DNA of 64,000 nucleotides from Mesostigma viride (taxonomy: Eukaryota; Streptophyta; Mesostigmatophyceae; Mesostigmatales; Mesostigmataceae), in contig RPFO01000310.1 of NCBI GenBank assembly GCA_009746045.1, positions 2,332,142-2,396,141 of the forward strand, given 5' to 3'. The translations under genes and the position numbers were made by a program. Of this stretch, positions 2,445-62,275 are shown in pieces (within the stretch, counting starts at the first letter, position 1; each line of letters starts with the position of its first letter). Below the pieces are notes generated by a model, which was not told the DNA's origin, searched no databases, and worked only from the letters and a program-made list of their open reading frames with translations.

Positions 2445-2477
2445 TTCGACCGAAAAAACCCCGAGGGTGAAAACCTG

Positions 2478-3118: not shown

Positions 3119-3412
3119 TGTGTTTTTTCAAATTCGGGCGGGCCCCAATTGTGGCGCGGCGCCACCCCGGCCACAATTGGGGTTAGATTTCAGTGGTATT
3201 GGGTGGTAGACCCTTTTGGGGGTCTACCACCCCATACCACTGAATTCCACCGGATTTGGCTGAATTCATTGGTATTATGGTGGATCAACGGAAATGAGCC
3301 GTTTTTCCGTTTCGGACCGGAAAAACCCAGTGTGAAAAAGTTTCGTCGAATTTGTCTTGGCCAAAACGGAAATTCGACCGAAAAACCCCCGAGTGTGAAA
3401 ACCCTGTAAAAG
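3119..3412. mobile_element. Foldback MITE-like element with nested perfect palindromes
   Basis: Two hairpins lie back to back. CCCCAATTGTGG (3143-3154) pairs with CCACAATTGGGG (3171-3182). A 23-bp arm at 3191-3213 pairs almost perfectly with 3219-3241 across a TTTTG loop. The outer ends, TTTTTTCAAATTCGGGCGGG and the reverse complement of the 3385-3412 end, are loosely inverted. A sequence like the right end (CGACCGAAAAA-CCCCGAG-GTGAAAAC) also occurs at 2445-2475 in the same orientation, so this is a repeated family. No transposase is encoded. The boundaries are approximate. Confidence 0.55.
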
Positions 3413-3429
3413 ATGTGTAACATTGGCAG

Positions 3430-4560
3430 AAGGAATTGAGTTGAAATCTGCAAGGGCTTTGATTTTGAATGGAACATCATTGCTGCTACTTTTCACGATG
3501 TGACGCACTGCTTGGCTGTGCGCTCGAAGACATACGGCATACCTCTCAAATCACTGGACAAAGTCGATTGAGTACAAATGCCTGCCACGGAGGTTGTACC
3601 TACACCCTCAGGTTTTCGCAACTTTGTCCGGGAGTACTGTCAGCCTACGCGATGGCTTTCTCTAGTGCCACCCTGAATCGAACTATCTCGGATAGTTGGA
3701 CCGTTTTCACTTCTTTCACCCACCTATCGGGCTCTTTTGGTTTATCCTTCATTTCCGGCGACTGCTTCGCCCTGTTTTTGTTCACAACGGTCCACCTGCC
3801 CGCCTGGCTTTCCTCCAGCTGGTCTTCATTCATTTCCGTCCTCAAATTACTTGAGTATCTTATGTCGCTACTTTACTCGGATCTGTATGCCTGGCTTTAT
3901 GGCGGATCCTTTGGATTTTCCGAAGTTATTTTGGGCATTTTCTTGGCGGCATAAGGTAGCCTCGGCATCTTGGAAGTCGTCTCCTTTGCATGCGGAAGTT
4001 TCTTTTGCAATCTTGGCTATGGCTGGAGTTTCGGCCTAAACGAACGCAAAGTAATACACATACACCCAAAATGGCTGTTTGAGACAGCGCAACATCTGTG
4101 AATGGGCATCGGAGTCATCTGGTGAGATCCGCGGTGTCTCGGGCGGCTTGGGCGGCCGCTTTGGCGGTTGCTGATTTTTCGTGCCGCGCAGCGTGGTTCG
4201 TCCAGTGACATGGCCATTTTCGCATGAAAGGACAGTTCTGAAACCTATGCATTTAGGTCTCGAATTTCCCCGCACAACCCGACCTTTCCCCTTGCACTAG
4301 TAACAGCCCTCACACCTAGCAACGTGGCCATGGTAAGATTCCTGCACATAGCTATTGGCGTGCTTACATAAGTATCACTATGCTATACCGTATAAACATT
4401 TCACACAGCAAGCGTCCATTTTTGACAAGCTCATTTCTTGGTGTGAATTGCTGCCTTGTAGCCAGCTGGGTCCTATACCCTGGCTTGTCACATGCAGCCC
4501 ATTCGCTCAACTCTCCCGAGGGCGCCTATGGTATCTCCATGCCTTTGGCATCATGACTGT
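3430..4560. other. No recognisable gene; open frames of uncertain status
   Basis: The longest open frames are 161 codons on the plus strand (3469-3954) and about 67 charged residues on the minus strand (3645-3845, rich in Lys and Glu). The minus-strand peptide has a more protein-like composition, but it is bounded by stops and I recognise no domain. This stretch probably lies in an intron of, or upstream of, the SHPRH-like gene that follows. Confidence 0.4.
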
Positions 4561-4576
4561 GAACCACCACTCACAG

Positions 4577-7500
4577 ATCGCAGAGTGCTCGTCGCGGCTC
4601 AAGAAAATGGGTGCCGGCTGGTTCACGCACGTGCTGGCAGAGGTGCTGGCGCGCAGACCTGACGGCGGTGCTGATGTCATCGAGCGCCTGCGCCAGCACA
4701 TTGACTACGCGGAGACTGAGGGGTTAGGGACGCACTTTCGCAATGCGACATCCATCACTCGGCGGTGGGTGGCGATAGCAGAGGTCCAGTGATCTAAATT
4801 GGGCCGGCAGGCAATATGGGTGTCTGATGGGATGTCCATCATCAGGCAGTGGCTGTAATCATTGGCGGTGGGTATAGTCATCGGTGTTGTTATTAGGAGA
4901 GGCAGTGCTCGCCATGGTGGCATTGCAGAGGTGTTCTTAGAAGGGCGAGCTGTGGGTGCTGGTCACGGGGTCATGGTACTACGGCAGGCGGTGAGTGGCG
5001 ATTGCAGCCCGCGATGGATCCTTCATTCGGTCGGCTTGCAGTATTGGTATCCGAAACGACACGCTTCACCAAATGGTGGCGGATGATAGCAGGGAGCGTA
5101 CCGTAAGAGCTGGTTTAATGAGTAACTTGCGAGATGCGTAGAAATCCTAGCAGAGCCGGCGGTGCCTCTCATGAGCTTGGTGATTTGTGGTTTGTGGGGA
5201 GAAACTGGTTGGCTCGGTGGGTCGTGGGGAAACGGCCCCATACCCCCCCCCCCCCCCCATTCTATCTTTGAAGGTTAACTCAGGCTTTACTCAGATTTTC
5301 TGCCACGAGGGGCCTCACCTTACGGTGCGATCGAACGATGCCGTGCTTCCCGTTTCCCCTAGCCCCTAACTGCTTCTCAAACCTCCGTTTCCACTTTACG
5401 CGACACAAGGGGCCTTGCCTTCCAACGTAGCCCCCATATGTATTGCTTCCCCCTGGCCCCACTCCCCCCTCGCTTCCCATGACTAAGGTTCCGTGGCGCA
5501 TGATGCCTTCCCTTTCATTGCCATCCCACCACTTCTCACTTCCTCCATCCCCCCCCTCCCTTCCCCCCTTGCTTCCTATAACGCAGGTTTGGTGATGCCT
5601 GGTGCCTCGCATTTCTCAATGACATCCCCCAGCACTTCTCATTTCTTCCATTCCCCCATACCAACTCGCTTTCTCCCCAATCCTTTACCTCAGGTTCCGT
5701 GATGCGCGAGGCCTCGCCTTCCTTCTGGCCGAGGAGGTGGAGGCAGCGTGGACCGCCCGCGAGGCGCTGCTATCGAGCCTGTGGAGTAAGACAAAGGAGG
5801 GCGAGGACCCGAGCCCCCTCGAGGTGGAGCTGGCGGGCAACTGCCGCGCGTGCCGGTGGGGGCCCGAGACGGCGCCCGTGTGCAGCCACTGCGAGATGGA
5901 CCAGCAGTTCCAGGTACAGATCTCCTGCCCTTGTCCTGTGATGAAGTTAACTTCAATAGGACTGATAGGGACAACTTTTTGAGGCTGTGTATGTGTGCGT
6001 GTGTTTGTGCAGAACTGTGAGATGGACCTGCAGTTCCAGAAACTATTTACCTGCTCTTGCTTGGTGGTGAAGTCAACTTTGCTGTAGGAGTGCTGTGGAT
6101 GATGTTTGACGTGCTAGGCATTGCGACGTGGACCAGCCATTTCATATACTAGTAAAACAGTTCGCTCTGTGGTGACATTGTATAGGAAGCTCTTAATTAT
6201 GGGAACGACTTCCCAGGCTACAGGGACCGACTTCCCAGGTCCAATAGGGAGCTATGGGATCTCGTTTCTGAAGATGTAAGGGGGGGCGCGTCCCGCGTGA
6301 GATGGACCAGCAGGCGCAGGTGCGGCACTGATAATCTTGTTTTCTGGTAGAGATGGATAGTCCCATGAGTTAGTCTGATTTGTTTTTTATTAGGCGTGGG
6401 GCGCACAGCCAGCGTGACATGGACCAGTAGTTTCAGGTACCAGTTGGCTTTGCTGCAACCACTAACCTTTTTTCCATGGCATGATTTTTCATCCTTAGCC
6501 ACCCCCTTTCTACACACCTCCCCGTTACCCCCCACGCCCTTGCTCTTCTCCACCTCCCCGCACCCACCCCCTGTCCACATGTTGCCTGCCGCTCACGCTC
6601 CTCCTACCCACCCTATCATGCCTCCCTCACCTCACGCACACACGTTCCTGCCTCCCTCACATCACGGATAGATATGATAGGCATCCACATCTACGCCATA
6701 ATAGAACACATCCGACAACATTCCTTGTATGACTATTTTCCTCTTTTCCCACCCCTGTACATGTTTCTTTCCCTCTGTGCCTTTTGGTTTACCTCCTCTT
6801 TTGTCTATCCTCCTTTCTCTTACTCGGTTAGTCTTGTTTAATTATTCCACTGGTAGTATTATTTTCTTTATTGTCTTACTTTGTTTTCTTATTCGTCCTT
6901 CCTCATCAACTCAATCATTCCCACAAACCATGCCTGGCCTCCCTCATGCACCCCAATCCTCACAAAAATATCCGTCGAACCGCCTGACATGCACGCCCTG
7001 GCCCAGTCCCTGGAGAACCGGCTCTTCTCCGTACGCTCCCAAGCAGCCGTTGGCGGCGCTGCGGTGACGGCCGACGAGGCCGCCCAGGCACAGCTGCGCA
7101 GCCGGCTCGAGCGGGGGCCAGGCGACCCCACCCGGCCCGGGAGCGGCCGACCCGGGAGCAGCACCGGGAGGGGCCAGGGGGGGGGCCTTGGGGGCGGGGC
7201 GACCTGGGACCCTGTGCTGCGGCGGGGTGGGCGGAGGGGCCTCGCAAATGGGGCGGGCACGTGGACAGGGGAGGAGGCAGAGGAGGGAGGGGAAGGGGGC
7301 GCAGCGGTGGGGGACACTGGGGGTGGTTTTATCGGCAGCTCTCGAGCCACGACAAGAAATGCCACGGGCACAGGCGTGGTGAATCGCGCAGTGACCACGT
7401 GGGCACCGTCTGAGTGCGAGGTGGCGCTGCGGTTTCTCCAGAGGGATTTGGCGCGGTGGCGGGCGACGTGGGAGAAGGAGCAGCAGGAGGGGGAGGGGGG

Positions 7501-10500
7501 GGAGGGGGGCGGGAGGGAGAGGGGTGTGTGGCCCCTGGCGGGCGCGTTGGAAGCTGCAAAGGCGCATGTGGCGATGCTGGAGGTAAGTAAAGATTGTGTA
7601 ATTGACTTTTAAATTTTGACTAGTAAAACTTTTTTACAGCACATTTGTGATACGAAAATACTACTGTCATACAAGGAGGTATTTTTTTTGTAATTGATTG
7701 ATTTGGAAGAAAACCGTGATGGAGGACTGATTTGGAAGAACACCATGATGGATAACTACCGGTGGCGCTGTGAGTCTATGACACAGTCGCGGCAGCTTTT
7801 ACCTCATTTGCCCCTACGTCTAATTGCTTTGCCAGTTTAGGATGGTATAAGCATGCTGTACGCGCGGACATAGCAGGCACAGGAGTTATGCCCCCGAGCT
7901 GACGACGCCTTACTGAGAGTAGGCATGTCAACAAAGTGACGCGGCTGCAAGAGGACGCCTCCCCTCCCCTCCACCGCCCTTAGGACTGCGCTAGCTCCAC
8001 AACCGGAGTACGGATGAGGGCCTTAAAGTTAAGGCCGGTAAGTATATGGTAAGTCGCCTACGGAAGGGCTGTATGCCACAAAATTATTCTGGCACCAATA
8101 CACCCATTCCGCCCTTTCTTATATGACACCGCCGGTACCACTTAACCACTAATTAGTTGCCGCACACCTAACATTAGATAGGCACCACCGGCCCTAGCTC
8201 CTATTCCCAATTCCCATTCCGTCATTTTTACTAGGTCGTTTTTCAGGTCGGAGGGTAAAATACCCACGTTAGATAGGAAACTATCTAGCCGGCTGGCTGC
8301 CCTTCCCCTTGAGCCCCTTTGTCGTTCAAATATAATACGAGCATAAGCTCACCAAGTGCTCGTGGCACTTTGGTTGCGTGTTAACGTGCATCATTGCTCA
8401 TTTTGCACTTCATTGACATTAGGATTTTGTATTAAAATATCATTGTTTTCCTTGGCGGTGCTTAGGACACGCTGGTGGCTTGTTAGCCACCCATGCTGAT
8501 GTCGCAGGCTCGCTTCGCTGTCGTGATATGTCTCTTAACCAAAGAGGACTGATACGACACTCCTATGGTGATGTTGGTCTGCATGGGCATCCATGCAGGG
8601 CATGCTCACGTACACCGCAGTCCTCTGGCAATAAACATCTACAGTAAAATTTCTGTAGTCGTCTAACAATGAACATGTATAGTTTACTTTCTATAGTTTT
8701 CTAACCATGAATAACTCTAACCATGAGTGATATCTTTAATTATAATAATGTACCAATGTAGCCGTGAGGGTGGCCTGCCCTCTGCTGTGTGCCATGGTAG
8801 CCCGGCGTCTTGCACCCAGTGGCATGCACCAACCAGGACAGAGCACACGGATGAACACCTGCAGACTCTCCCGATGAAACTTAGAGAAGTAGGAAGCCAT
8901 GCCTGGTCTCGGATGTGCCCACGTGCACCCGCCACGCCCAGGGCATGTGCACGGACGTTTGAAGTTTTACGAAAATAACTGCACACTTTCAGTTCAAGAA
9001 AATAAAGAATATAAATCAATGAACATATCAAGCGTTGTCTTGTGTAGGATCCCCTCACATGCACCTCTGATCTCTCACCTGCACTGGCTCCACCAGGGCA
9101 TGCGCAGGGAGTTTGTCAAGGCGCGGCTGTTTGCCAGCGCGCAGCGCCACCTGCTGTACGCGCTCGATGAGCTGGCGATGGCCACCATGCGCATCCGGTT
9201 GCGGCTGCCGGGCGAGGAGGTGGGTGGAGGCATGGGCACAGCCAATCTATTTTTCTTCACCAACCTGACATGTGTTGCCTCGCTCCCAACTGCCATGTCA
9301 TATGGCTCTTGCTGCCAAGAAGGGAAGCTAGTGGCGCCACTTGGCATTGATTGTTCGTGTCCCAGCAGCATGCACCATCTCTGCGGCAGCCTCTGTGGCT
9401 TTCAAGGAGGAGGTCGAACGATGATTTGGGGCAAGGAATGAAGGAACTGCCTTGCGCATTTTCGTGCCATTCTCCCAAAGCCGTGATGGGCTTAGAAGGC
9501 GCCTCTAAAGCCTCCCCACAACCACTTCATCATGAAAATCGTCGATAGAGTCTGCTCCCAAAGGCGCCGTGAGGTGGCGAGGGAGGACAAAAGCCAGGTC
9601 GTGGGTGTTATGGCTGGAGAAGGGAAGAAGGTTGTTCACACCAGCATCCTAACGGGACAAAGTTCATTTTGGTGTAAAACAGCATGGTTGGCTGTTTATA
9701 ATAGTGAGCTTTCTCTTCGTGATTTGTGTGGCATTCGTGAGCTCACAGGTAAAGACTACTGCATTAACCCTGCTTTTGCCTGGGAGAAGCTGTGGGGGGG
9801 GGAGTGTGTGGTGGATTCATGGCATGGCATGGCATGGCATGGCATGGCATGGCATGGCATGGCATGGCATGGCATGGCATGGCATGGCACGGCATGGCAT
9901 GGCATGGCATGGCATGGCATGGCATGGCATGGCATGGCATGGCATGGCATGGCATGGCATGGCATGGCATGGCATGGCATGGCATGGCATGGCATGGCAT
10001 GGCATGGCATGGCATGGCATGGCATGGCATGGCATGGCATGGCGCGGCATGGCGCGGCGCGGCGCGGCGCGGCGCGGCGCGGCGTGGCGTGGCGTGGCGT
10101 GGCGTGGCGTGGCGTGGCGTGGCGTGGCGTGGCGTGGCGTGGCGTGGCGTGGCGTGGCGTGGCGTGGCGTGGCGTGGCGTGGCGTGGCGTGGCGTGGCGT
10201 GGCGTGGCGTGGCCTGGCGTGGCGTGGCCTGGCCTGGCGTGGCCTGGCGTGGCGTGGCGTGGCGTGGCGTGGCTGCAAAGCTTGTCCCTGGGCTGGTCCC
10301 AGAGCATAGATGACTGGAACCTTTTGGGTTTTCTCTGCAATTTTGGTCTCTGCGACCCTTGGGGCTGTTGAGTGTTTCAACTTCTGTACTGGCAACACTT
10401 GTTTTCCTGACAAGTGTGAATCTGCCTTCTGTTCCTGCGAGTGCACGAGCCTACAATCACTTTGACTTTCACAATCCCGATGTGGGCGACTTGTCGTGTT

Positions 10501-13500
10501 CACTCTGGCAAGTAGCCCTGCAGAGGGAGGAGCTTATGCATGCTTCCCTTCTGGCATCCTGTATATGGCATTTGGATATGGGACATTCTCTGATGGGGTA
10601 TCTCTGATTGTCCCCTGGCGACTGTCACTTGGTTGTACGTTGGTTGGCCACTGTCACTGCAGGTGGAGGAGTACGAGAAGAACTTCAAGGTGTGCGCGGA
10701 GGACATCCCCGCTCTCAATGTCGGCTTCAGCAGCGACAAGCTGGCCAATGAGAGCAAGCTGGAGGCGTGCAAAGGGCAGCTGCGCTACCTCAAGGCAAGA
10801 GTTTTTCCACGTATTTGACCCCCTTCTTTGATAGTACATTGGCTGGAGACGGTTATTGGGCGGATTAAGGAGGGAGTGCGCAGGTGTACCAAAATGGCCG
10901 TAGCTTCAGCCCAGTCGAAAATTGCTCTATAAGCCCATCGAGCATCGGTCTTCCCATCCTTTCCTTTACCTGGCTGCATGACAAACTACTCTCTCTGGCC
11001 CCTTTCTCCCCCATCGTCTCCTTGCCTGGACACGTGCACCTCCACGTGTCATGCGCGCAGAACCTGGCAGAGCAGCGAAAAGCAGCAATCGCTGCCGCCA
11101 CCGCCGCCGCAGAGGCCTCCGCCGCGGCCTCCCAGAGCCTGCCACCTGGCACGGTGACGGATGCCAGCTCAGCAGCCGAGGCCGCCACCGCGCTGCAAGA
11201 GTGTCCCGTGTGTCGCGACCTGCCCTCGGGGGGGGAGGTCGCGGTGCTTCCGTGCGGCCACTTCCTGTGCACGCGCTGCTGCCTGGCCATCATTGACCGC
11301 TCGGTGTCCTCCACCTGTCAACTAGCCGCGCAGCACATCAACTGCCCGACCTGCCGCGCGCGCGCCCACACGCTCAACATTTCGTACGCGACCGTGTCGG
11401 GCCGTCCGTCCGCGTTTGGCGTCCACAACGGGGGGCGGGTGCCGACATCCACGGTCGCCGAGGCCCCTGCAGGGGCCCCTGGAAAGCCGGCGGCAGGCCG
11501 GCAAGTCGGCGGCGATCGACCGGGGACGCAGCATGCGGGGAGCCAATGCGGCAGCATGGATGGGGGAGAGGGAGCCCATGCGTTGTCAGAATCAGCGTCA
11601 ACGGGAACTGGGGTTCCAGGGGCAGGTGGCAGCAGTAACGGGGGAGGTGAAGGGGGTGGCTCATGCCGGATGAAGGGTGTAGCGGGTGATGACGGGGTGA
11701 CGGATGCAAGCCATGTGGTCCTGTCGGACATCCCTGCGCTGGAGGGGAGCGAGCATGAGGGGCTGGTGGAAGAGGAGATTGAAGTGAAGGGGTCGTACGG
11801 CACAAAGGTACGCGGGGCTGGGCGCTCGAGATGGATCACGGGGCAGTGATGTGTTTGTCAGTCATCGACAATATAAATGATTATATAGTGGTCTATGTAT
11901 GATGTTTTTCCATCACGTTCCCCTTCTTTCTCCCAACTGAATGCGGTAGTGTGGCTATGCGTTTGCCGATCATCAATGGTGCAATCTTCGATCTCTGTTT
12001 GAATTGATAGCTTGTGAGCCAGTCGCGCAGCGTGACCAATCCAAATTAATTTTGCACCTGTCTAGGTTTGCCATCTTCTGCCGCACCCTTTTCCCCCAGC
12101 TAAAAACGGTCCTGCGGCGCCTACTGTGGAGCCACATCATTCCCACAACTTACCATGTATGGTACCTTTCTTCCACCTTCCGCACCCTTGTCCCCCAGCT
12201 GGAGGCGGTCGTGCGGCGGCTCCTCAAGATTCATGTAATACCCACAGCTTAAGATCGCTATCACTGTTTTCCCATCCTCTTCCCTCCATGTCCGCCCAGC
12301 TGGAGGCGGTGGTGCGGCGGCCCCTCAAGATCCATGTAATACCCACAGCTTAAGATCGCTATCACTGTTTCCCATCCGCTTCCCCTCAATGTCCGCACAG
12401 CTGGAGGCGGTCGTGCGGCGGCTTCTCAAGATTCATGCAATACCCACAGCTTAAGATCTCTATCACTGTTTTCCCATCCTCTTCCCCTCCATTTCCGCCC
12501 AGCTGGAGGCGGTTGTGCGGCGCCTCCTGTGGATCCATGCGCGCGACCCCACGTCCAAGTCCCTGGTCTTCTCCCAGTGGCAGGATGTGCTGGAGCTGCT
12601 GGGACACGCGCTGGAGGCCAACGGTATCTGCTTCGACCGCGTCAAGACCAAGGCGTCGCTCTTCAAGTGCATCTCCAATTTCAAGGCCAGCAGCCGCAGT
12701 AGCAGTGCCAGCAATTGTGACGATGCCAGCCGGGGAAGAGTGGAGGCTGCCACTTCTTCTTCACCAAGTGTCCAAGTCTTGCTGCTGCCGCTGCAACATG
12801 CGGGACAGGGGCTCAACCTGGTGGAGGTGAGTCTGGGCGTATGCGAGCCTGAGAGTGATGAGCGAGGTAATGTTTTCTCTGTACTTTTTGTTTTTATCCC
12901 ACTCTGCTGTATTTATGTTGCTACTCTAATAGCTGGTTCCTGTAAGTTAGCCACCAGTTTTGGGAGAAAAATATCTTATGTGTTTCGGGGCTCCTCTGAT
13001 ATGTGGTCTTTTTTCCATTTTCAAATTTCTTTTCTTCCTTTTGACGGGTGCTACTTTTCTCGCATTTGCCAGCCTGCCTGCCTGCTCCTGCCAGGCTTGA
13101 AAGTGTTTCCCACCAACCGCCTTCCCCAGTTGCTCGGCTACCCTCCCATCTTGTGCTCCATAGCGTGGTGTGATGAAGATTCGCTGGGAGGCCTGGGCTT
13201 TGATCAGCTAGAAGTACGCTACATAGAAGTACGCTATGTAGAAGTACGCAATGTCTTCGCTATTGAACGCTTCCATAACCTATGTCTTCTCTTCTTCCGG
13301 TCCCTGCTAGCGATGTGTCAGGAGCACAACACGTGCCCGGCCAACTACCTGTCGCGCTTTCTAATTTCTTGCTCATGTTGAGGTCGCGAAAGTTCAGGTA
13401 GCCTGCATGGCTCACCCAGAAATGAAAGTTTATCACTTGCAATTTTGGTTGACTGGGCTGCAGTACCTGGCCAGTTGCATCCCTGTTGCTTTAGTGGGCA

Positions 13501-15087
13501 CCGTCACGATGCAGAACATGAGACTTGAGATGCTACCATGATGGTATTAATGGTACTAACAGTATTAAAGGGTGTTAATGGCATGAACGGTATTAATGAT
13601 ATTCATGGTACTAATGGCATTAATGATAGTCATGGCATTAACGGTATTGATGCTATGAATGGTATTAACAGTATTAACGGTATTGATGGTATTAATGGTA
13701 TTAAATGTATTAATACCTATTAATGGTATTAATGGTATTAATGGCATTAATGGTATTAATGGTATTAATGGTATTAATGGCATGAATGGTATTAATGGTA
13801 TTAATGGTATTAATGGTATTAATGGCATTGATGGTATTGAAGGCATGAATGGCTTTACTCTGCAAGACCATCGGTGTCTCTGGCAGGCACCGTATTTTGG
13901 CACAAAGAGTTATTCGTGGTGTTGCGGCTGCTATAACAGCTACAGTACTCATGAACCACCATCCACATCACTCTAACGTACCGCGGTGTTGCGGGTGGCA
14001 GGCGCAACACGTGGTGCTGGTGGAGCCCATCCTCAACCCTGGCCTGGAGATGCAAGCGATCAATCGCGTGCACCGGATCGGCCAGACAAGAAAGACCTTT
14101 GTCCACCGCTTCATCGTAAGCCCACTTCTGCTGTCTTGGGAGTCCTTGTCAGACTGCTTGACCGGAAGTCCTGTTGCAATTTGCGATAAGCTCAAGAGGG
14201 GTAGAGCGGATGCGTGGATTGTGAGTTTGTGAGTTTGTGAGTTTTCGGCATTTGTGAGTTTGTAGGTTTGTCGGTTTGTTGATTTTGCGGCATGCTTGAT
14301 TGACTGTCATCGAATAGTGCCTATATTGCAATTGTGACATTGTGGAGTACTAGAGTGCGAGGTTGGCACTCGGGTTGCCAAGCTTATGCTCTCTCCTGCC
14401 CCCGATTGCCTCCCACACACCCCGATGCACCTTCTATTGCTCGGCAGTTGGCTGCCCTGCATGGCACTGTTACTCTGGCTTGTCCATCGCTTCTCAGGAG
14501 CTTGTTGCTTCCCATCCATTTGCAGGCATTCAGTCATGCCCCGTTTTCCTCCACGATGCTTCCCTTTCGCTAGTTGCGCGGATGTAACTCGGTGAAACCA
14601 CTACGGGCCTGCGCTACCAAAGGAGAAGATTGGTGGCTGATCCCCAGTCAGGTGTTAATGTGCGTGTTCCTCAGCTCGTTCCTCTGTTCTGGCCGCGCCG
14701 CTGACAGTATGCATCCGCCTTAATTGCCCAGTTTACTGCCTAAAAGCAGTCATCAGTTCCGATGATGTTGTCCCCGTGGCAGACCACACACCAGCCTCGT
14801 TTGGATCTCAAATATTGGACAGCACCATCTCACAGTGCCATCCTCTCTGAAAGTTGAAACAGCTGTAGCTAACTTTTGCTTGTGGTATTAAATCGTTTCT
14901 CTGCCTTTTGTGCTTTTCGCAGGTTCGCAACACTATTGAGGAGCGTGTCTACGAGCTTAGCCGGCATAAGGCCACCAGGGGGCATGCAGGGCTCGGCATG
15001 GGGGGGCTGAAGAAAGGGGCGGAGGACATGGGGTTGACGGTGGACGACATCAGCGAGCTGCTCAGCAAGGGCCCCATCCCTTTATAG
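4577..15087 (+). CDS. SHPRH: SHPRH-like E3 ubiquitin ligase / SNF2-family helicase, 3' part (nine exons)
   Basis: Exons inferred from homology, GT-AG sites and reading phase: 4577-4764, 5694-5913, 7007-7582, 9097-9219, 10663-10794, 11061-11807, 12503-12826, 14002-14115, 14923-15087. Together they give about 862 residues. In order they carry a helical linker ([11 protein letters not shown]), a zinc-knuckle-like patch (CRACRW...[11 protein letters not shown]), a C3HC4 RING ([17 protein letters not shown]) in the 11061 exon, and the SNF2 helicase C-terminal lobe ([37 protein letters not shown]). SHPRH proteins polyubiquitinate PCNA and support tolerance of replication blocks in the nucleus. The N-terminal ATPase lobe is absent here and presumably lies upstream of the window. 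A poorly conserved Gly/Ser-rich stretch separates RING and helicase. The 10794 exon uses a GC donor. The first exon start is the least certain. Yeast Irc20 is a related alternative name. Confidence 0.88.
5880..6440 (+). repeat. Exon-edge echoes downstream of the SHPRH exon ending at 5913
   Basis: The exon 3' end TGCGAGATGGACCAGCAGTT followed by CCAG/gtac recurs in degraded form in the intron near 6017 (TGTGAGATGGACCTGCAGTT), 6122 (GCGACGTGGACCAGCC), 6297 (CGTGAGATGGACCAGCAGGC) and 6411 (CGTGACATGGACCAGTAGTT). The copy at 6017 also repeats the following intron bases (CTCTTGC, GTGATGAAGT-like text), so the unit crosses the splice site. Confidence 0.8.
7583..9096. other. Intron of the SHPRH-like gene without recognisable content
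   Basis: This 1.5-kb intron starts GTAAGT and ends at the CACCAG before the 9097 exon. I see no coding similarity, long repeat or hairpin. A/T-richer unique sequence dominates 7600-8750. Confidence 0.6.
9819..10272. repeat. Pentanucleotide satellite with ordered variant blocks
   Basis: About 90 copies of an NNGGC pentamer lie in an SHPRH intron. They begin as roughly 44 ATGGC units with one ACGGC, pass through a short block of GCGGC (10041-10083), then about 26 GTGGC units, and end with GTGGC mixed with CTGGC (10211-10250). The long open frames (repeats of WHGMA and WRGVA) are artefacts, since the tract sits between exons 9097-9219 and 10663-10794. Confidence 0.95.
12085..12502 (+). repeat. 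Serial acceptor echoes before the SHPRH exon starting at 12503
   Basis: A unit of 100-102 bp, containing a pyrimidine tract, CCCAG and the first bases of the exon (CTGGAGGCGGTCGTGCGGCG), is present four times upstream of the genuine exon. AG dinucleotides end at 12099, 12199, 12299 and 12400, and the real one at 12502. The most distant copy is the most diverged (CTAAAAACGGTCCTGCGGCG). The genuine exon is identified by its continuation into SNF2 motif [11 protein letters not shown]. Confidence 0.9.
13536..13850. repeat. 9-bp minisatellite GGTATTAAT in an SHPRH intron
   Basis: About 35 units of GGTATTAAT and close variants (GGCATTAAT, GGTACTAAT, GGCATGAAT) run head to tail. They read as INGINGING in one frame, but the tract lies in the 12827-14001 intron and is not coding. 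Confidence 0.93.
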
Positions 15088-15540
15088 GACACAAATTGGC
15101 GTTCGAGGCAATGTTGGCTCTAGAAACGAACGGTGGCTTCATGGTTATAGGCAAATCGGTTCAATCTCATGACTGCATTTGGCTGAATTCTCAATCAAAT
15201 GGATTGTGTCTTAGAGCTCTGTTGAAAGAAATCTAGCCAGCACCTAGTAGGCCGGTACAAGGGCAAGCCATGTGGCACGAGCTCGCTAGTCACTGCGGCA
15301 ACCGTTGCGCCTCACAGCTGTGCCCCCCCTGACTTGGGGGTCGTATCTAACATGACCTGTCAGGCCTGAGCTGCCAGCGCTATTTGCAAAATTATCATCT
15401 AACCCCAGCTAGATGACTGAAAATTCAGGTTCCCCTGGTACTATCCCATTGTTGGCCGTACACAGCACATGCCTTTATGCAAACTGGACAGTGCGGAAAC
15501 TGGGAGGTCCATTCATGCGCAGGAAATCCCCTACGCCTTT
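15088..15540. other. 3' flank of the SHPRH-like gene
   Basis: After the TAG at 15085-15087 the sequence is unique and non-coding. It should hold the 3' untranslated region, but I cannot place a polyadenylation signal with confidence. Confidence 0.5.
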
Positions 15541-16055
15541 CATGTGAGCTGACATATACCAACGACATCCGCCTCAAGACCAGCCCCGAGAAGTCCCAAC
15601 TGTACTGGCGGGGCAGGGACCTTTATGTCAGCAACAAACTGTGGAAGCCCCCCCGGGCTCCCCCAAGATAGAGCCTTCAAGCTAGTTGTACAGATGGGGG
15701 CAATCGACAAAAACGGGACAGCTTAGGCATTACAGCACTCAGAATGATTAGCATATAATGAGAGCACATACTAGCTCGATCATCTGGTTATCTGACTTAG
15801 CTATAGATTAGGTCTGACTCCTTGTGGCCATCAGCTTGCGCTTTAGTAAACGCCTACAGCCCACCCCACCTTTTAAAAGCATAAGCTATGCGTCAGCCTA
15901 CCTATGGCTGTGTTGCACCCACAGTGTTGTGCCCCGGCATTGTGCTGCATTTACACCATCCATTCCATCCCATGTTCCCCTCCCACTGAGGACTTATGCT
16001 CACGTGACGCAGTCACGTGTCTATTAATTAATTAATCAATTATCTAGCTGTTAAT
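15540..16055 (+). mobile_element. 5'-truncated LINE fragment: end of ORF1 plus 3' region
   Basis: The last 35 or so codons (IRLKTSPEKSQLYWRGRDLY) match the C-terminus of the intact ORF1 protein at 60719-62083 (RHKQDPQKPKVYWRGGDL). About 330 bp of 3' sequence follow, then the shared terminus: CCCCTCCCACTGAGGACTTA, the palindrome CACGTGACGCAGTCACGTG at 16001-16019 and an ATTAATTAATT tail. No reverse transcriptase lies between ORF1 and the 3' end. The 3' region is homologous, in inverted orientation, to 17464-17860. Confidence 0.8.
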
Positions 16056-16247
16056 TAATCAATTAACTGCACGTAACAGCGTTACGTGAGCCAAGGAACA
16101 CAGTTGTCTCACTTCATGGTCCGGATTCTCCCGATTTCTGGCCTGTGCTGGTTGTCTCCTTGATAGCTAGTTGTCTCACTTCATAAAAATATGGCTGGTT
16201 GTCTCCTTGATATGTGCTACACATAATTACTGGAATATGATCGATCC

Positions 16248-17348
16248 ATGAACGTGGTAGCGATCACGAACGAGCCTGGAGAAGGGGGGCCGACTAACCA
16301 GCAGAATTTACTAGCTGACCTCATTTATGCCGACGACATCACGCTCATCGAGAAGCCGGAGTCTGCCCAACTTTGGCTGGACTGCCTAGACTCAAGGCTC
16401 GGGCGGTTGGTCTAGAAATCAGCCCCAAAACGGAGGCCCTGGCCCTCGGCATGGCAGGGCCCCCACCCACACTCCGCCTCTTAGACGATGCCGAGGTCAA
16501 CTACCCTCCTTCAGGCCGCTTCAAGCTGCTCGGCAGTTGGCTTCCCGACTGCGAGGACGACCTGACGACACGGATCGGCATGGCGTGGGCGCACCTCCAT
16601 GACCACCGCCGCTGGTGGAGCAACCCCGCCCTACCCCGGATCGTCAAGCGTGACCTCTTCAAGGTCGTCATTCTGACGATCCTGACCTACGGCGCCGAGA
16701 CGTGGGCACTGACGCAGGAGCTGGAGCAACGACTCGACGGCGCCGTCACCAAGATGCTGCGCCAGGCCCTTAACATCCCCTTTGGTTTGCACATTAGTAA
16801 TGAGGATTTGTACGCTGATTTGCCCTATGTTTCCCACATTATTAGGCACAGGCGCCTGGGCCTAGCCGGGCACCTGGCCCGCACAGATCAGGTAGATACC
16901 TCAGATAGACAAGCTGGCACCAAGCCCGCCCAGCCTGGGCGATATGTCCTAACCTGGCGTGCCCCCGGCCGCGCGCGGCAGGGCCGCCACCCGTGGACAT
17001 TTCGTGATAGACTCGGCATGGACATGTGCTACATGTACACTAGACATGACGGGCTCACCCCCGGGCAGCCTCCTGGTTTGTCTGTAATATGGAGGCAGAT
17101 GGTGCGCAAGGATAGATGGCAGTATAGTGATGAAGGAGACCACCCCCAAGCCTGTGGGGGCTCCGCGTGTGACCAAGTATGGCATTCATCATAGCGATTC
17201 GGGCCGCGGTGCCGGCCCACACCCAGGCTGTAACTAGGACCTAGATAGCTTATACCATCCATTCCATCCCATGTTCCCCTCCCACTGAGGACTTATGCTC
17301 ACGTGACGCAGTCACGTGTCTATCAATTAATTAACTAATGAACGTGGT
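16248..17348 (+). mobile_element. LINE family A copy, 5'-truncated, with 11-bp target-site duplication
   Basis: The direct repeat ATGAACGTGGT at 16248-16258 and 17338-17348 brackets a LINE insertion. It holds the C-terminal half of a non-LTR reverse transcriptase: the catalytic LIYADDITLIEKPESAQLWL, then thumb/C-terminal sequence (RLGLAGHLARTDQVDT). A one-base loss near 16388, relative to the copy at 48770-50483, breaks the frame just after WLDCL, so it is dead. The 3' end has the CACGTGAC...GTCACGTG palindrome (17300-17318) and a short ATTA-type tail. Confidence 0.88.
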
Positions 17349-17454
17349 TAAGAGTGCTTATATATTTTGTGCCAGCGCTATACGTACATCTGAAAGGTAT
17401 GTGGACCCATGCAGGTCTTAAATGCTTCATAACTAGCTTCATGATTTAGAATTT

Positions 17455-18411
17455 AATAATAGGCACGTGACTGCGCCACGTGGGTGCCAAAACACTCTAA
17501 GGGAACCTTAAAACCTCTATACACACACGAGGACGGATCGGCGCCCTAGCTTCTCTCACTGCCACAAGTGCCGGGCAAGCCACAGAGCGCTCTATCCGCA
17601 GCATGGTGCCGGGGCGCAACACTGTGGCCGGGTGTAAGCCAACCATGCAATACCATAGGTAGGCTGACGCATAGCTTATGCTATAAAAAGGTAAGGTGGG
17701 CTCAAGACGTCGGCTTAGGCGGAAGCTGGTGGCCACGAAGGAGCCAATGCTCTACGGTACTAAAATGCTGAGCTCATGAATATCATTCCAAGTGCTGTAA
17801 TGCCTAAGCTATCCCGTTATTGTCGATGGCCCCCATGTAGACAACTAGCTTGAGCGATCTATCCCTGGGGAGCCGGGGGGACTTCCGCAGTTTGTTGCAT
17901 GTCGACATAAAGATCCCCGCCCCGCCAGTACACTTGGGGCTTCTCGGGGCTAGTCTTGTGGCGGATGTAGTCGAGCCACTGGTCGCAGCGTTGCTGCTGC
18001 TGGGCTGGCGTCAGGTCGTCGTCAAGCGACCAGGGGGAGTTTGCCAGCTTCTTGCGGCGAGAGAGGAACCGAAATCGGGCTGCGATGTCGCTGAAGGTGA
18101 GGACCACTGGTTAGGGGCCAGCCTTGTCCCGTGGATGGGGCAGGCAGTAGGCGCCCTGCAGTGCCGTTCCTTGCAGCTCCATTCGTGCCAAGAGCTCGCT
18201 GGTTCCTGAGCTGAGTCGTCCAGAAGAGAGTCAAGGGTCTCCCCCGGCTGCATGTCGATGCGCCCGAGGATGACCCGGCAGCGGCGGCGGTCGCGGTCAG
18301 CGGCCTCGCGGCGCTTGTCTTGATCGAATCCAGCTCCTGGCTGTGCAATTTCATGATTGCAAAGCATATTCCCCCCAACCTTTGCTTGTTCTCATCGAGG
18401 GCGCCCCACAA
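17455..18411 (-). mobile_element. ORF1-only LINE fragment, frameshifted
   Basis: On the minus strand, ORF1 pieces appear in two frames: the RRM-like block (DRDRRRCRVILGRIDMQPGE; compare RARRECRVVLRRFPQKPGE in the intact copy) and the C-terminal block (LDDDLTPAQQQQRCDQWLDY, then QVYWRGGDLY). About 390 bp of 3' region follow, ending in the imperfect palindrome at 17464-17482 and an AATAATAAATT-like tail. There is no ORF2. It abuts the hydrolase gene at 18429, and its 3' region is an inverted match to 15680-16030. Confidence 0.8.
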
Positions 18412-18428
18412 TAACTTGACGCGAAGCC

Positions 18429-19106
18429 CTATGGCAGTAGTTCATTACTTCCCACAATTGCACTGCTCGAGAAATGTTGTGTGATTCTGCGTAGCCCCTC
18501 CTTATGGCCGGCCACCCCTGCCACCGAGCTGCAGCCATCTTCCACAACATAAGTCCCGTACATGCGATAAAACGCGTCCAGCGCGGTGGCAAACACGCAG
18601 TAATCCGTGTTCACGCCGCATATATACACATCCGTTACCCCCTCCTCCACCAACCGCCTCTCAAGCTGCGACCCATAAAACGCTGAGTAATTCGACTTTG
18701 GGATAAACTCAAGCCCCAGGTCCTCCAGCTGTTTGTGCAGGCGCGCCCCGTCCGTCCCAGCCAGGCCCACGTCTCCATAGACCCAGGTCAGGGACGTGGC
18801 TGCAGGGTCCTCGATCCACAACCGGCAGTCGAAGCACGCCACGAACACGCCGCTGCGCGCCAGCTGGCGCACTGTCTCGATGATGTCAGCGCGGCGGGGG
18901 AGACCGGGAGGCAGCTGCTCCACCGTCATGTCGACAATGAGCAGGGCACGCCGGGGCAGCTTGCTGCATGAGGAATCATCACCATCATTATTGACACCAG
19001 CATCAACATCGTCACCACCACGGCCTGCATGCATCAGAGGGGTGCCCGCTGGGAGATGCTTGCGCCCGGCACTCTCAGCTGCTGCATGCGACCGTCGGGT
19101 AGCCAT
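18429..19106 (-). CDS. Isochorismatase-family cysteine hydrolase
   Basis: A single uninterrupted frame of 225 codons with ATG at 19106. The fold's catalytic triad is visible: Asp in ALLIVDMTVEQ (about residue 59), Lys in EFIPKSNYSAFYGSQLERRL, and the nucleophilic Cys in CGVNTDYCVFATALDAF. The preceding GVNTDYC matches the family's cis-peptide loop. The family includes nicotinamidases, isochorismatases and ureidoacrylate-type amidohydrolases. I do not see the Asp-x-His metal-binding motif typical of nicotinamidase, so the substrate stays open. The first 45 residues are charged and Gly/Asp-rich, and could be an extension or mean that translation starts later. It lacks introns, unlike its two large neighbours, and the LINE fragment ends only about 18 bp past its stop. 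Confidence 0.85.
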   Translation of the reverse strand: MATRRSHAAAESAGRKHLPAGTPLMHAGRGGDDVDAGVNNDGDDSSCSKLPRRALLIVDMTVEQLPPGLPRRADIIETVRQLARSGVFVACFDCRLWIEDPAATSLTWVYGDVGLAGTDGARLHKQLEDLGLEFIPKSNYSAFYGSQLERRLVEEGVTDVYICGVNTDYCVFATALDAFYRMYGTYVVEDGCSSVAGVAGHKEGLRRITQHFSSSAIVGSNELLP

Positions 19107-19154
19107 TACTGTAGTTGCGCCTCGTCGCTCCTCGCTAGCAGGCTGCGGCTACTG

Positions 19155-19240
19155 GACACCATGGTACAAGGGTTTAGGGGTAAATAGGGACACCATGGTG
19201 CAAGGGCTTAGGGTTTAATAGGGACACCATGGTGCATGGA
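19155..19240. repeat. Short direct repeat GACACCATGGTRCAAGGG, three copies
   Basis: GACACCATGGT followed by ACAAGGG or GCAAGGG and TTAGGGTTTAATAGG-like text recurs at about 19156, 19189 and 19224, just upstream of the hydrolase start. It may lie in its promoter or 5' untranslated region. Confidence 0.75.
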
Positions 19241-19496
19241 GGAGGCATCCTCATAGCTTCGTACTACATTACAATTATACTCATTTCCCCACTCCTTTAA
19301 GCGATGGCCAGGCATTGTACTGTATTCATGCCAGCAGACAACGGTGTGGCAGCAACAGTAAAGGTAAATGTGAGAACTGACGAGAGCCAGTCCAGTCGTG
19401 GGATCATGGGCATGTTTAGCCTGGGCCAGGTTTCTGGCTGAAAATAAGGGTGCCTGACATACATGGCATGGGCTTTACGGTTTTCAGGTTCAGCAG

Positions 19497-19660
19497 GGTG
19501 CGCCTGGCGCCCATGACCTATCTGCTAACGTCCCCTCCGTAGCCCCAAACTTATCCATGGTATGCTGGCAACCGCCAACAGTGTGCAGCTGCCAGTAGCC
19601 AGCCGTAGTGCCAATGATCGCCGCATTGCGCTGAGAGTCTGCAAGGGCATGCTGAAAAAA
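19497..19660 (-). CDS. Possible terminal exon of an unrecognised minus-strand gene
   Basis: On the minus strand a pyrimidine tract and CAG (CTTTTTTCAG) precede an open stretch reading HALADSQRNAAIIGTTAGYW and continuing to a TGA near 19491. Composition and acceptor are plausible for a last exon, but I find no partner exon or domain upstream. The surrounding interval 19250-20560 otherwise shows nothing I can name. Confidence 0.22.
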
Positions 19661-20639
19661 GAGTAGTATAAAACTATGAAAAATATGGCCGTAATCAGCA
19701 ATGGGCCTTTTTTTCCTCCTGGTAATTGAAGACACTGGCAGTATTGCTTGTGTCGGTCTAACCCAGCAACGGCACATGCAATAACTTTGATGCATGCAAT
19801 CCAGTGAATGACACCACCGCACTTTGCATCGATGGCATGCATGCATTATCAGCAGCAAAGCATCGGCTACTTTTGTTGGCGGGAAGGGCCCACAACAAAA
19901 CTATGCATATGGAAACATCTGGCAAGGCAAAAACAACAGGGCAGAACGTACGTGCTTCGTAACAGCACATTTCTTTCCTACGGCTAAATGTACCGAGTTC
20001 AAGGTGAACTCCTATACGGCTTTTAAGTGCACATTATCTGCACATCGCACGGTTTGCATCATCGACATAAAGTGCGACACGTTGTGTAGGCGGGAACCAT
20101 TCAGCCAACACCAGCGAAAGAGAAAGAGAAAAAAGCAATAGCCAGAGCCGTTCCTCTTCCGTAAGAAAAACATGAAAGCCAGCCGACGCACATTTAAGGT
20201 CACTTGCTGCGGGCGCATATTAGGTATCAGCTACCTAACCGAATAATTGTAAGAAACTATCCCTACTAGCAGAGCAATGCATATCCCACTCGCCTTTCAG
20301 CGGGGGGTTCAGTAAAGCAGAACTGAAAAGCGTCGAATTTACCGCGCCACGCTTGGGGAAAATGCGGCCACTTGTACGTGACCATTCCCCGCCTGACTGC
20401 CTATTCTAACAGTTGACGGTAAGTCCCCGGCCCCGTCAACCACTAGCTCGACTTCCGAAGTTTTTTCAATGCGTGTCCCTCAGAAGTAAAGCGCCCTGGT
20501 AACCGAATGGTAGCCCCTGGTTTAGCAAATTACCTCAAAACGTCAGGCGTCTCAGTGGCCGGGCTACAGAGTAGAAACAAACGCGCATTGATGACACCCT
20601 CGTTGACTTGCCCTCGTTGAATAATATGGGATTTTGTAA

Positions 20640-21135
20640 GGATTGCAGGTCACATGCCACATACAATCAAGGTCCAGCACGCTTCCTATGTTGCAACATA
20701 CTTCACAGAGGCCATTACCTCGGCCATTACGACAGATTTTGCGGTCACGACGGGCAGTTGGTGTAGCATTCCCCCCTAAATCCGTCGGCAGCAGCCTTGC
20801 ATCGATTGTGAGAATAGTAATTAATAGGCAATTCGACCTCCGACTTCTTGCATATTGTGGCACGCGCAGCCCGCAGCTCCTCTTTTGTCGACAAGTTCGA
20901 AGCTTCGGGTTACCCACCAAGCGCACCGGAGGCAAAGTTAGCATATGGCTACCTTCTAGCTCATAGCCCAACCAAATCGGTTGCAGATCTAGATGGATCC
21001 CGCGCGCATCGGCGAAGTTGGGTTTCGCCCGACTCCCGCGCGTACGCGTGGTTCTTGGTGCCACCGTGCCAGACCAGTCACAGCCAGTCACAGCCAGTCA
21101 CGTGGTATGGCAGACAAAATTGGCGGGAATGGTAA
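20640..21135 (+). CDS. Possible exons of an unrecognised gene
   Basis: After TTGCAG near 20648, one frame reads HTIKVQHASYVATYFTEAIT and ends near a GTGTAG-type donor. A later frame reads VARAARSSSFVDKFEASGYP through to a stop at 21135. A 175-codon open frame also exists on the minus strand (20564-21091). The phases of the plus-strand pieces do not join cleanly and I recognise no domain. Either strand, or neither, may be coding. Confidence 0.2.
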
Positions 21136-21141
21136 TTTGCT

Positions 21142-21233
21142 GCTGCCCCTGGACGGGCAGAGATCGACCGGCGCGCGGCGGGGTCTCCGATCGATCTCCC
21201 CCGCCGGTCGATCTCTGCCCGTCCTGGGGCAGC
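21142..21233. repeat. Strong hairpin, arms of about 32 bp
   Basis: The arm at 21142-21173, including GACGGGCAGAGATCGACCGG, pairs with 21202-21233, including CCGGTCGATCTCTGCCCGTC. There is one mismatch in the outer part (CCCCTGG against CCTGGGG) and a loop of about 28 bp that itself contains GATCGATC. It could be a foldback element or a structured RNA. Confidence 0.85.
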
Positions 21234-21531
21234 AACTCTCCACGCCCGGGCAAAGGGATTGGGTCGTCAGCAGAAGGAAATCAGCACGGAGTGCGATCCA
21301 CTTTTCCCACAGGCAAATAATTAACGCACCTGCGCCACTTGAGCGAGGAAAATAATGGCGATGGAGGACAACGGTTAGAGTGACAATTATTATTATTATT
21401 ATTACTTATCACGTAGACTGCGTCGCGTGGGTAACAGTAAATGAACCTTCGATAGAGTGACGATAAAGATAACCAACCAAGGTGCCAGTTCTGCAACCTG
21501 TGGTAAAAATTTTAACGTCATGGTTTTGATG

Positions 21532-22154
21532 GAATTTTCTAGGCTGCCCAACGTGCCTTCCGGCTTGAGAATTCTGGCAGATCACTTCTTGTTTATCTGG
21601 CCACAGCTCAGCTAAGCCTTGAAGCAGGTTTCTATCAAGGTACGCTTACGGGACCTGCTCTCAACTTGTCATTGCTCAGCAATTGAAGAACGAAATATAC
21701 TGTCGTTTTCTGTTTGTTCCACGAGTAGAGCGTGGCGATGAGGGGGCACACGGTTATGACATATATATGATGATATATGTTTTTTCCAGAAAAATCTGGA
21801 TGCACGAATCCCGCGTAATGTCATGATGGAGAAGCTGGCCTTTGTTACCTGTGCCTGCAATAGATGCGTGCAGCGACTTGGTGATGCTCTAGTGTTCAAC
21901 TACATTTCATTTGTTAAGGTCTGTAGGGTGAAATTACCCAGGCATCGCCTCTGCAAAGGGTGCCAGCCAATCCCGTGTTTGTCTTACTTATGATAATTGT
22001 TTGGTCAGCCAACTTTGTGTTCTTCTTAGTGACCCTTCGCTTTCTGCCTAGGTTCACGTGCACGTTGTCAAGGCCTTTGCTGTTCTGGTTGCTTTTGCTA
22101 GTTTTTCCATTAATCGTCGTAGGTCGCCTCGTTTTCTCCGTAGCGCGCTCCTGA
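21532..22154 (+). CDS. Possible exon chain of an unrecognised gene
   Basis: A plausible exon follows TTTTCTAG at about 21542 (reads AAQRAFRLENSGRSLLVYLA, donor AG/GTACGC). A second follows TTTTTTCCAG near 21788 (reads NLDARIPRNVMMEKLAFVTC, then ACNRC, donor AAG/GTCTGT at 21919). A hydrophobic frame at 21960-22154 has two membrane-like segments. The first two do not share phase, so the model is incomplete or wrong. Confidence 0.25.
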
Positions 22155-22199
22155 TGGGGTGAAATTGTGTTGATTCAAGTCGGCATGGTTACATCTTAG

Positions 22200-22940
22200 C
22201 AGTCGTCAGGAATGTAACCTTGTTTTGCCCTTTCTTGGCCACCCGCGTCTGTGGTTTTAGTCGTGAACATGATGTTCGGACGGATGGGCGTGTGACACTG
22301 TACGCTTGTGCTGTTCACAGACCCGAACTTAGCACAAGCGTTTGCCTTTTTATCACGACTGATCTGTAGTTGCACCTTCCACCTGCTGTAATAATAATGA
22401 ATTGGCACTGGACAGGGTTCATTTGCGCCTTCTCTTCCTTTCCCATTCACTTCACAACCAACAATTATACTTTTTTGTTTTTTCCCTCTAATGTGCCAGA
22501 TTTTTTGGCCCATCCGACCCCCTGTCGGAATTTGGTGGCTCTCGCGAAGCCTAGTACTCTAAATTCTGTTCTTTATCTACGCTGTTGCAAACGACTAATG
22601 TGCCTGTCCTCCTTGGCATAGGCCCTCCACCAGCTTCCAGCCAGTGGCTCCATTAACCCTGAAAATCGTGCCCACACCTTACATTTGACCCAAAATCTGG
22701 CCTTAGCCCCTGTCCCTACCGGTTAGCCCTAGTCCCTGCCCTTGACATATATCTCTAACCTCTGTCTTTATCCCCTGCCCCCAACCTGCCACACTAACAG
22801 CAGCCCAGCATAAAGACGGACCACCTTCCTCCATCCTTCTTCCCTCTCCCTGTTTGTCCCTTTCACGCTAACCCCTGCCCCTAACATGCCATAGACTAGA
22901 AATGACTGCCCCTGACATCCGGTTCCCCCCTCATGCCCTT
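22200..22940. other. Intergenic or 5' region of the SKI2 gene
   Basis: C-rich unique sequence with repeated short phrases (CCCTGCCC, CCCTAGTCCCTGCCC) leads toward the SKI2 start. No coding region or defined promoter element can be supported. Confidence 0.5.
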
Positions 22941-22950
22941 GACCTCTGCG

Positions 22951-23179
22951 CAGCATGGAGACCGATGCCCCTATCATCTGCCCTCAAAACTTGCTATCCA
23001 CACCTGGCCCCCCTTGTTTCCATCCCATCTGCCCAGCATGGAGGCAGATGCCGCTAGCCTCTGGCCCAACCGTGCAGTCCTACCAGTCACACCAGTCACA
23101 CCAGTCACACCAGTCACACCAACTGCCCTTGACACCTGGTTCCAACATTCCGCCCGCCTGTCCTTGACACCTGCCCAGC
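22951..23179 (+). repeat. Echoes of the SKI2 start-codon edge
   Basis: The bases around the SKI2 initiator, CCCAGCATGGAGACGGATGC (ATG at 23180), occur twice more upstream as GCGCAGCATGGAGACCGATG (ATG at 22955) and CCCAGCATGGAGGCAGATGC (ATG at 23038). Each is preceded by CCCTTGACA- or CATCTG-like text. A four-copy CAGTCACAC tandem lies at 23082-23120. The AG before the ATG may be the acceptor of a 5'UTR intron. Confidence 0.8.
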
Positions 23180-48625
<25,446 letters not shown>

Positions 48626-50483: not shown

Positions 50484-50518
50484 GCATGGAATGGATGGTG
50501 TAAGCTATCTAGGTCCTA
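50484..50518 (-). mobile_element. Left remnant of a LINE A 3' end, split by another insertion
   Basis: GGAATGGATGGTGTAAGCTA, then TCTAGGTCCTA, matches the LINE A 3' end in reverse orientation (compare 48850-48885). Its continuation, GTTACAGGAGTGTGGGCACC, resumes at 51786 after the 50519-51776 insertion. Confidence 0.8.
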
Positions 50519-62083: not shown

Positions 62084-62275
62084 AGCTGCCTGTCACGTGA
62101 TAACTTCCGCAATACTGCGTTTCAGCCGTAACCGATTATACTGGCGGGTGCGTCTCAAAAAAGCGCATCGAATGCGAGTGGTCTGACCGAATTTGGGGCT
62201 CAGATGCAAAAGATCTGAACTCCGCCGTCAGCCATACCGCCGTCAGCCATTTTCGTTGCCGTCATTCGACCACAA

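What the first reader, a model, noticed from the sequence alone, without database searches (positions are those of the whole stretch)
4577..48625. Exon-edge echoes: systematic tandem duplication across splice junctions in two unrelated genes
At about a dozen exon edges of the SHPRH-like and SKI2-like genes, 20-60 bp of exon plus its splice site and adjoining intron are repeated 1-7 times inside the intron. Copies generally retain GT or AG at the splice position, and at several edges they diverge with distance from the exon. This is not a recognised repeat class. It suggests a genome-wide process (slippage or template-switch repair at junctions) that extends introns outward and leaves rows of decoy splice sites. 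Known related idea: introns can arise from tandem duplication of AGGT-containing exon sequence.
Basis: partly seen in the sequence, partly recalled or inferred. Interest (0 to 1): 0.88.

Follow-up and report, generated by a model that had tools for sequence, protein, structure and literature searches.

The report
Exon-edge copies inside algal introns
In what appears to be a green alga, many introns carry one to several worn copies of the neighbouring exon's last or first 20-50 bases together with its splice site; the pattern recurs in other genes of the same genome, is commoner beyond the 5' splice site, and hints that exon-intron junctions are hot spots for small duplications that lengthen introns.

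Summary
In the SKI2-like and SHPRH-like genes, 12 of 37 exon edges tested carry intronic copies of exon edge plus splice site, one to five clear copies per edge, some fading with distance. It is not a quirk of the window: in CCT and HSP70 genes on other contigs, picked without regard to echoes, 13 of 56 donors and 3 of 56 acceptors have them; 7-8% of comparable intron windows have a copy. Stop-codon edges: 0 of 11. Lags cluster at 80-110 bp. Most likely these are short duplications, tandem or patch-like, from a local mutation process active in this genome, more frequent or better retained at junctions, donors above all. Against plain tandem duplication: in 12 of 17 chosen pairs the spacer is too dissimilar. 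Intron birth from AGGT duplication gets no support. One of two near-identical gene copies lacks its decoy donor. A genome-wide process is supported; why junctions are favoured is open.

The parts
5483..5616 (+). SHPRH-like gene, two upstream copies (5483-5514, 5579-5616) of the acceptor edge whose exon begins at 5694
   Evidence: 99-bp tandem unit
6006..6440 (+). SHPRH-like gene, four copies (6006-6039, 6111-6149, 6299-6321, 6406-6440) of the exon end/donor at 5913
8938..8961 (+). SHPRH-like gene, one weak copy (score 16) of the acceptor edge whose exon begins at 9097
11927..12438 (+). SHPRH-like gene, five copies (11927-11955 weak, 12090-12134, 12194-12235, 12291-12336, 12392-12438) of the acceptor edge whose exon begins at 12503
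29236..29278 (+). SKI2-like exon ending 29183: one donor echo, lag 88
30156..30209 (+). SKI2-like exon ending 30100: one donor echo, lag 95-99
33363..33924 (+). SKI2-like exon ending 33292: row of donor echoes, five clear (to 33737) and two faint, fading with distance
34437..34568 (+). SKI2-like exon beginning 34655: two acceptor-side echoes, lags 213 and 104
34818..35048 (+). SKI2-like exon ending 34765: three copies in a 91-bp tandem array (array 34718-35062) that repeats exon end, donor and intron
35741..35858 (+). SKI2-like exon ending 35720: two donor echoes
37316..37985 (+). SKI2-like exon ending 37213: three donor echoes (37316-37354, 37858-37893, 37947-37985)
46233..46794 (+). SKI2-like exon beginning 47055: three acceptor-side echoes at score 15 or more (46233, 46601, 46775); 46346 and 46637 appear as short repeats only

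Best explanation
The echoes are short local duplications, tens of bases to about 165 bp, that span or copy an exon-intron junction. They come from a local duplication and templated-patch process that is general and still active in this genome; some have gone on to expand as minisatellites. Shown: copies exist in SKI2-like, SHPRH-like, CCT and one HSP70 gene; some are near-exact tandem copies; junction copies exceed the intron background; donors have more than acceptors; tandem copy number and one echo differ between two copies of the same CCT gene. Inferred: when a donor is duplicated, splicing from the outer, original donor leaves the mRNA unchanged, so the copy is tolerated, while duplicated acceptors are more often harmful; and junctions are hit or retained more often than other intron points, perhaps because G-rich intron starts are break- or R-loop-prone.
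For: Unflagged CCT and HSP70 genes: donors 13 of 56, acceptors 3 of 56 at score 15; 9 and 3 of 56 at score 19. Control, collapsed intron windows: 7.1% of 4,733 (score 15) and 4.8% of 4,909 (score 19) have a downstream copy; mirror control for acceptors 8.1% and 5.6%. Lag 60-130: 13 of 112 unflagged junctions against 13 of 1,497 points lying wholly inside the same introns (0.9%), p=8e-6 even if exon-anchored copies stay visible three times longer; counting only echoes with 15 or more exon bases, 10 of 112, p=7e-4 (first version). Profile over 152 edges: 18 at the junction, 0-3 at +110 to +250, 4-5 at +260 to +290. Near-exact tandem cases: 91 bp at 34718-35062, 40 bp across a CCT donor, 48-bp array at L018 3913. 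Ongoing change: five of seven indels of 4 bp or more between L012 and L013 look tandem; a local patch replaces the echo's donor in L013. Stop-codon edges 0 of 11. Intron starts are more G-skewed at echo donors, 0.325 (n=21, hand-made list) against 0.100 (n=55), p=0.01.
Against: Tandem duplication with neutral decay fails in 12 of 17 hand-chosen pairs: the spacer is less like the sequence after the echo than the simulated 5% quantile; only 3 of 17 reach p of 0.005 against shuffles (an 18th pair was set aside because the ungapped measure failed; clearly tandem young cases were not among the 17). Uncollapsed, 21.5% of intron windows have a copy because of satellites, so the excess depends on collapsing repeats. 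Acceptors in unflagged genes are at or below background. The donor bias is p=0.06 at the stricter score. 21 HSP70 donors outside C1801 show none.
Confidence: 0.55

Rival explanations
1. Ordinary tandem-duplication load with no junction preference; echoes merely stay visible longer because one copy is a conserved exon, and acceptor copies are weeded out.
For: The genome is full of local repeats: 42 events in ten 10-kb stretches, six of them beside the window.
Against: Stop-codon edges, anchored in the same way, give 0 of 11 (p=0.04 against all donors, 0.07 against unflagged donors), a small sample with shorter flanks.
Confidence: 0.22
2. Echoes are kept because they work: decoy splice sites that bind U1, act as recursive (AG|GT) stepping stones or tune splicing.
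For: Similarity often covers only exon edge plus splice site; in the row after 33292 the CAG|GTGAG-like core outlasts its flanks; sense introns hold 32 distinct strong donor motifs, antisense 16, shuffles about 12-14.
Against: GT retention, 21 of 24, is what 89% identity predicts. The first copy's donor is itself conserved, which alone makes similarity end near +7. Unannotated exons inflate the sense count. One of two gene copies lacks the decoy donor. Six of the eight donor echoes printed lack AG before the GT.
Confidence: 0.12
3. Introns were born here by tandem duplication of AGGT-containing exon sequence.
For: Proposed for some Drosophila introns (PMC2891723, passages read).
Against: That route makes the donor and acceptor surroundings of one intron alike; identity in 64 introns is 0.256, shuffled pairs 0.255 (old births could have decayed). 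Echoes lie inside long introns, not at the opposite end.
Confidence: 0.03
4. Assembly or sequencing artefact.
For: None direct; the assembly holds at least one pair of near-duplicate stretches, and a frame change near a G run was seen in a SKI2-like exon.
Against: Copies are diverged and lie in many contigs, and the 40-bp donor duplication is present in both L012 and L013.
Confidence: 0.03

Closest known systems
Intron gain by regional tandem duplication of exon sequence with a proto-splice site (Lehmann et al. 2010, PMC2891723, passages read; Gao and Lynch 2009, title seen in a reference list)
   Same: Local tandem duplication that includes a splice-site-like AG/GT and ends up in an intron
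   Different: There the duplication creates an intron between the copies; here an existing intron receives copies of its own exon edge, and no donor/acceptor mirror is found
Minisatellites and tandem sequence duplications from break repair in plants (recalled, not read)
   Same: Units of tens to about 100 bp, copy-number changes, arrays seeded by one duplication
   Different: Junction and donor preference; many copies share only exon edge plus splice site, with an unrelated spacer
Templated insertions of end joining by polymerase theta (recalled, not read)
   Same: Short patches copied from close by, new spacer between the copies
   Different: I recall no preference for exon-intron junctions; genetic basis untested here
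Introner elements (recalled; papers naming them were listed, none opened for this point)
   Same: Repetition associated with introns
   Different: Introners are dispersed families of whole introns; each echo copies its own exon edge

Membership tests
Tandem duplication / minisatellite | Head-to-tail copies with the whole unit repeated | tested here: inconclusive
   Met for young cases (34718-35062; L018 3913; L012 1893-1970); spacer too dissimilar in 12 of 17 other pairs
Tandem duplication / minisatellite | Copy-number variation between related copies | tested here: met
   43-bp and 18/19-bp units differ by one copy between L012 and L013; not shown for the flagged window edges
Intron gain by tandem duplication (proto-splice site) | Upstream exon end repeated at the 3' end of the intron, downstream exon start at its 5' end | tested here: not met
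   Register identity 0.256 in 64 introns, shuffled pairs 0.255, sd 0.007
Functional decoy / recursive splice site | Core conserved beyond neutral expectation | tested here: inconclusive
   21 of 24 copies keep GT, about the neutral expectation; the row at 33292 keeps its core
Functional decoy / recursive splice site | Use in RNA | not testable with these tools
   No RNA reads available
Templated insertion by end joining | Dependence on polymerase theta | not testable with these tools
   Needs mutants or mutation accumulation
Introner element | Same sequence in many introns of the genome | not tested
   No genome-wide search with an echo or spacer was made; by eye the spacers printed share nothing

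The most novel reading that the evidence does not exclude
A junction-targeted duplication process: splice junctions, above all G-rich 5' splice sites of transcribed genes, are break- or template-switch-prone in this alga, so that exon-edge-plus-splice-site patches are repeatedly copied about 95 bp into the intron, lengthening introns and laying rows of decoy sites.
Probability: 0.3. Interest if true: 0.82.

Novelty: new variant of a known kind. Interest (0 to 1): 0.6.

Why it matters
If junctions really attract duplications, it would give a concrete, datable route for intron growth and for the origin of decoy and alternative splice sites, and would tie a mutational process to transcription or splicing. 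It can be tested with one annotated genome, sister strains and RNA reads. If it turns out to be only long visibility, it still supplies a clean clock for intron turnover, since the exon keeps the original sequence.

Tried and rejected
Unmasked control windows: 21.5% of intron windows have a copy, driven by satellites; replaced by collapsed 'first copies'. First interior spacing list: short-period arrays appeared near 50 bp because of the window size; replaced by true periods. First CCT edge test with approximate edges: replaced by exact splice sites. The intron-point background let points run past short introns; redone with little change. Selection on decoy GT: no excess. Intron birth by AGGT duplication: not supported. 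Sense excess of donor motifs: not used as proof, because unannotated exons remain in those introns. A partner copy of the window was looked for with one 321-bp probe only; none was found. Organism: 'green-lineage alga' is an inference from SKI2 matches; the rbcL search (PF00016) did not complete. Literature: only the listings and passages of two papers were obtained, so no claim of absence from print is made.

Dropped rows and biases: L013 was left out of edge counts as a near-duplicate of L012; one of 25 HSP70 introns had no donor candidate and was dropped; edges with under 100 bases of searchable intron (under 60 for HSP70) were not scored (one search scored 32 of 33 CCT donors and 32 of 34 acceptors); donors of terminal CCT exons, the acceptors of two first exons and both edges of one uncertain exon of L019 were left out by hand. 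The donor L014 1379 was set by hand after its echo had been seen. The spacing lists, the echo-donor list and the 18 pairs were chosen or typed by hand. SKI2-like and SHPRH-like counts come from the flagged genes and are biased towards echoes. Stop-codon edges had only about 610-730 bases of flank in 8 of 11 cases. Only 7 of the CCT gene places (plus one near-duplicate) and the introns, not whole genes, of 14 HSP70 gene places were fetched.

Full report
What the window is. It lies in contig C1107 of a 440-Mb, 2,243-contig assembly. The SKI2-like gene (plus strand, about 26.7-48.6 kb) was mapped exon by exon by tblastn with a recalled human SKI2 fragment and by reading splice sites. The first ten exons mapped and the last two join without a stop. 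The joined protein finds land-plant and trebouxiophyte SKI2 proteins (56-66% identity among the 120 listed); that this is a green alga is my inference. The SHPRH-like gene (about 4.6-14 kb) was placed from recalled plant SHPRH; a below-cutoff RING match is the only other support.

The observation. Direct repeats at the reported edges are plain. For each edge I aligned 40 exon bases plus 10 intron bases with the same intron, at most 1.5 kb. Of 24 SKI2-like edges, 8 score 19 or more; the best score over 60 shuffles of each intron was 17. SHPRH-like: 1 of 7 donors and 3 of 6 acceptors at 15 or more. Donor 33292 is the showpiece: stretches scoring 32, 38, 27, 19, 18, 13 and 12 with distance, the last two within the range of chance.

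Is it only this window? No. CCT (PF00118) exons were located in the genome, and seven genes plus one near-duplicate were fetched; introns of HSP70 genes likewise. They were picked from exon coordinates, before any of their sequence was seen. At 15 or more: donors 11 of 32 (CCT) and 2 of 24 (HSP70, both in one gene), acceptors 2 of 32 and 1 of 24. Several copies have the form exon end plus donor about 95 bp downstream. One CCT donor carries a near-exact 40-bp tandem duplication in both gene copies; another begins a 48-bp array with nine copies found.

Is it more than the background? This genome is rich in local repeats, so the control matters. Counting raw intron windows, 21.5% reach 19, because satellites count many times. 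Keeping only windows without an upstream copy, 4.8% (score 19) or 7.1% (score 15) have a downstream one; the mirror figures are 5.6% and 8.1%. Unflagged donors are at 9 of 56 and 13 of 56, acceptors at 3 of 56 for both, i.e. at background. The profile over all 152 edges has 18 at the junction, 4-10 from +10 to +100, 0-3 from +110 to +250 and 4-5 at +260 to +290. Stop codons, anchored like exon ends but not spliced, gave 0 of 11.

Anatomy. Lags cluster: 16 of 27 edge echoes with lags of at least 40 lie at 80-110 bp, against 1 of 20 interior events, although about 10 of 34 events in the ten stretches also fall there by my count. The exon part is 7-46 nt. Young copies repeat exon and intron together. 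Others often share only exon edge and splice site: in 12 of 17 hand-chosen pairs the spacer is less like the sequence after the echo than a simulated tandem duplication with neutral decay. Part of this is expected, since the real donor is itself conserved and similarity should therefore end near +7, but spacers next to exon parts at 92-94% identity should still be recognisable. Either only a patch was copied or spacers turn over by further rearrangement. Both kinds of change are seen nearby: between L012 and L013 (2.1% diverged) five of seven indels of 4 bp or more look tandem, and in L013 a local patch has replaced the decoy donor that L012 carries.

Mechanism. The best-supported reading is a general, still active local duplication and patch-copy process, unusually visible and apparently also unusually frequent or well retained at junctions, chiefly donors. 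The donor bias (all genes 20 of 75 against 8 of 74, p=0.011; unflagged 13 against 3 of 56, p=0.007, or 9 against 3, p=0.06) fits tolerance: splicing from the outer donor ignores the copy, whereas an upstream acceptor copy competes (inference from known splicing rules). G-skewed intron starts at echo donors (0.325 against 0.100, p=0.01) hint at a mutational cause but could reflect gene class. The 21 HSP70 donors outside C1801 lack echoes; stronger purging in highly expressed genes is one guess.

What it is not. Intron birth by AGGT duplication predicts that donor and acceptor surroundings match; in 64 introns they do not. Strong selection on decoys is not shown: GT retention, 21 of 24, fits neutrality. 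An artefact is unlikely, given diverged copies on many contigs.

Limits. The literature could not be searched properly.

Noticed in passing
window 38041-41382 and 43027-45877: Two large satellites (18 bp x about 186 and 75 bp x 38) lie inside introns of the SKI2-like gene.
   Followed up: no
window 10794: Apparent GC-AG intron in the SHPRH-like gene (AAG|GCAAGA).
   Followed up: no
window 42130-42480: Reading frame changes near a long G run inside the SKI2-like exon 41821-42701; an assembly error or a small intron cannot be told apart.
   Followed up: no
window 1291-2477, 16319-17194, 49311-51643, 60719-62092: Open frames that look like a DDE transposase and LINE-type reverse-transcriptase parts (by eye; no family search made).
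   Followed up: no
L012 about 3246-6369: About 3 kb present in L012 but absent from L013, carrying two identical copies of a roughly 112-bp repeat (3767-3878, 6162-6273); looks like a mobile-element insertion in a CCT intron.
   Followed up: no
L020-L031, L034-L038: HSP70 introns other than those of contig C1801 show no donor echo; several HSP70 matches lie close together on C1580.
   Followed up: partly
L016 upstream of 7845: By eye, at least three worn copies of the acceptor edge, roughly 85 bp apart.
   Followed up: no
L006 6303-6340: A stretch near the window contains another likely donor echo (lag 241) at the end of a 748-codon open frame.
   Followed up: no
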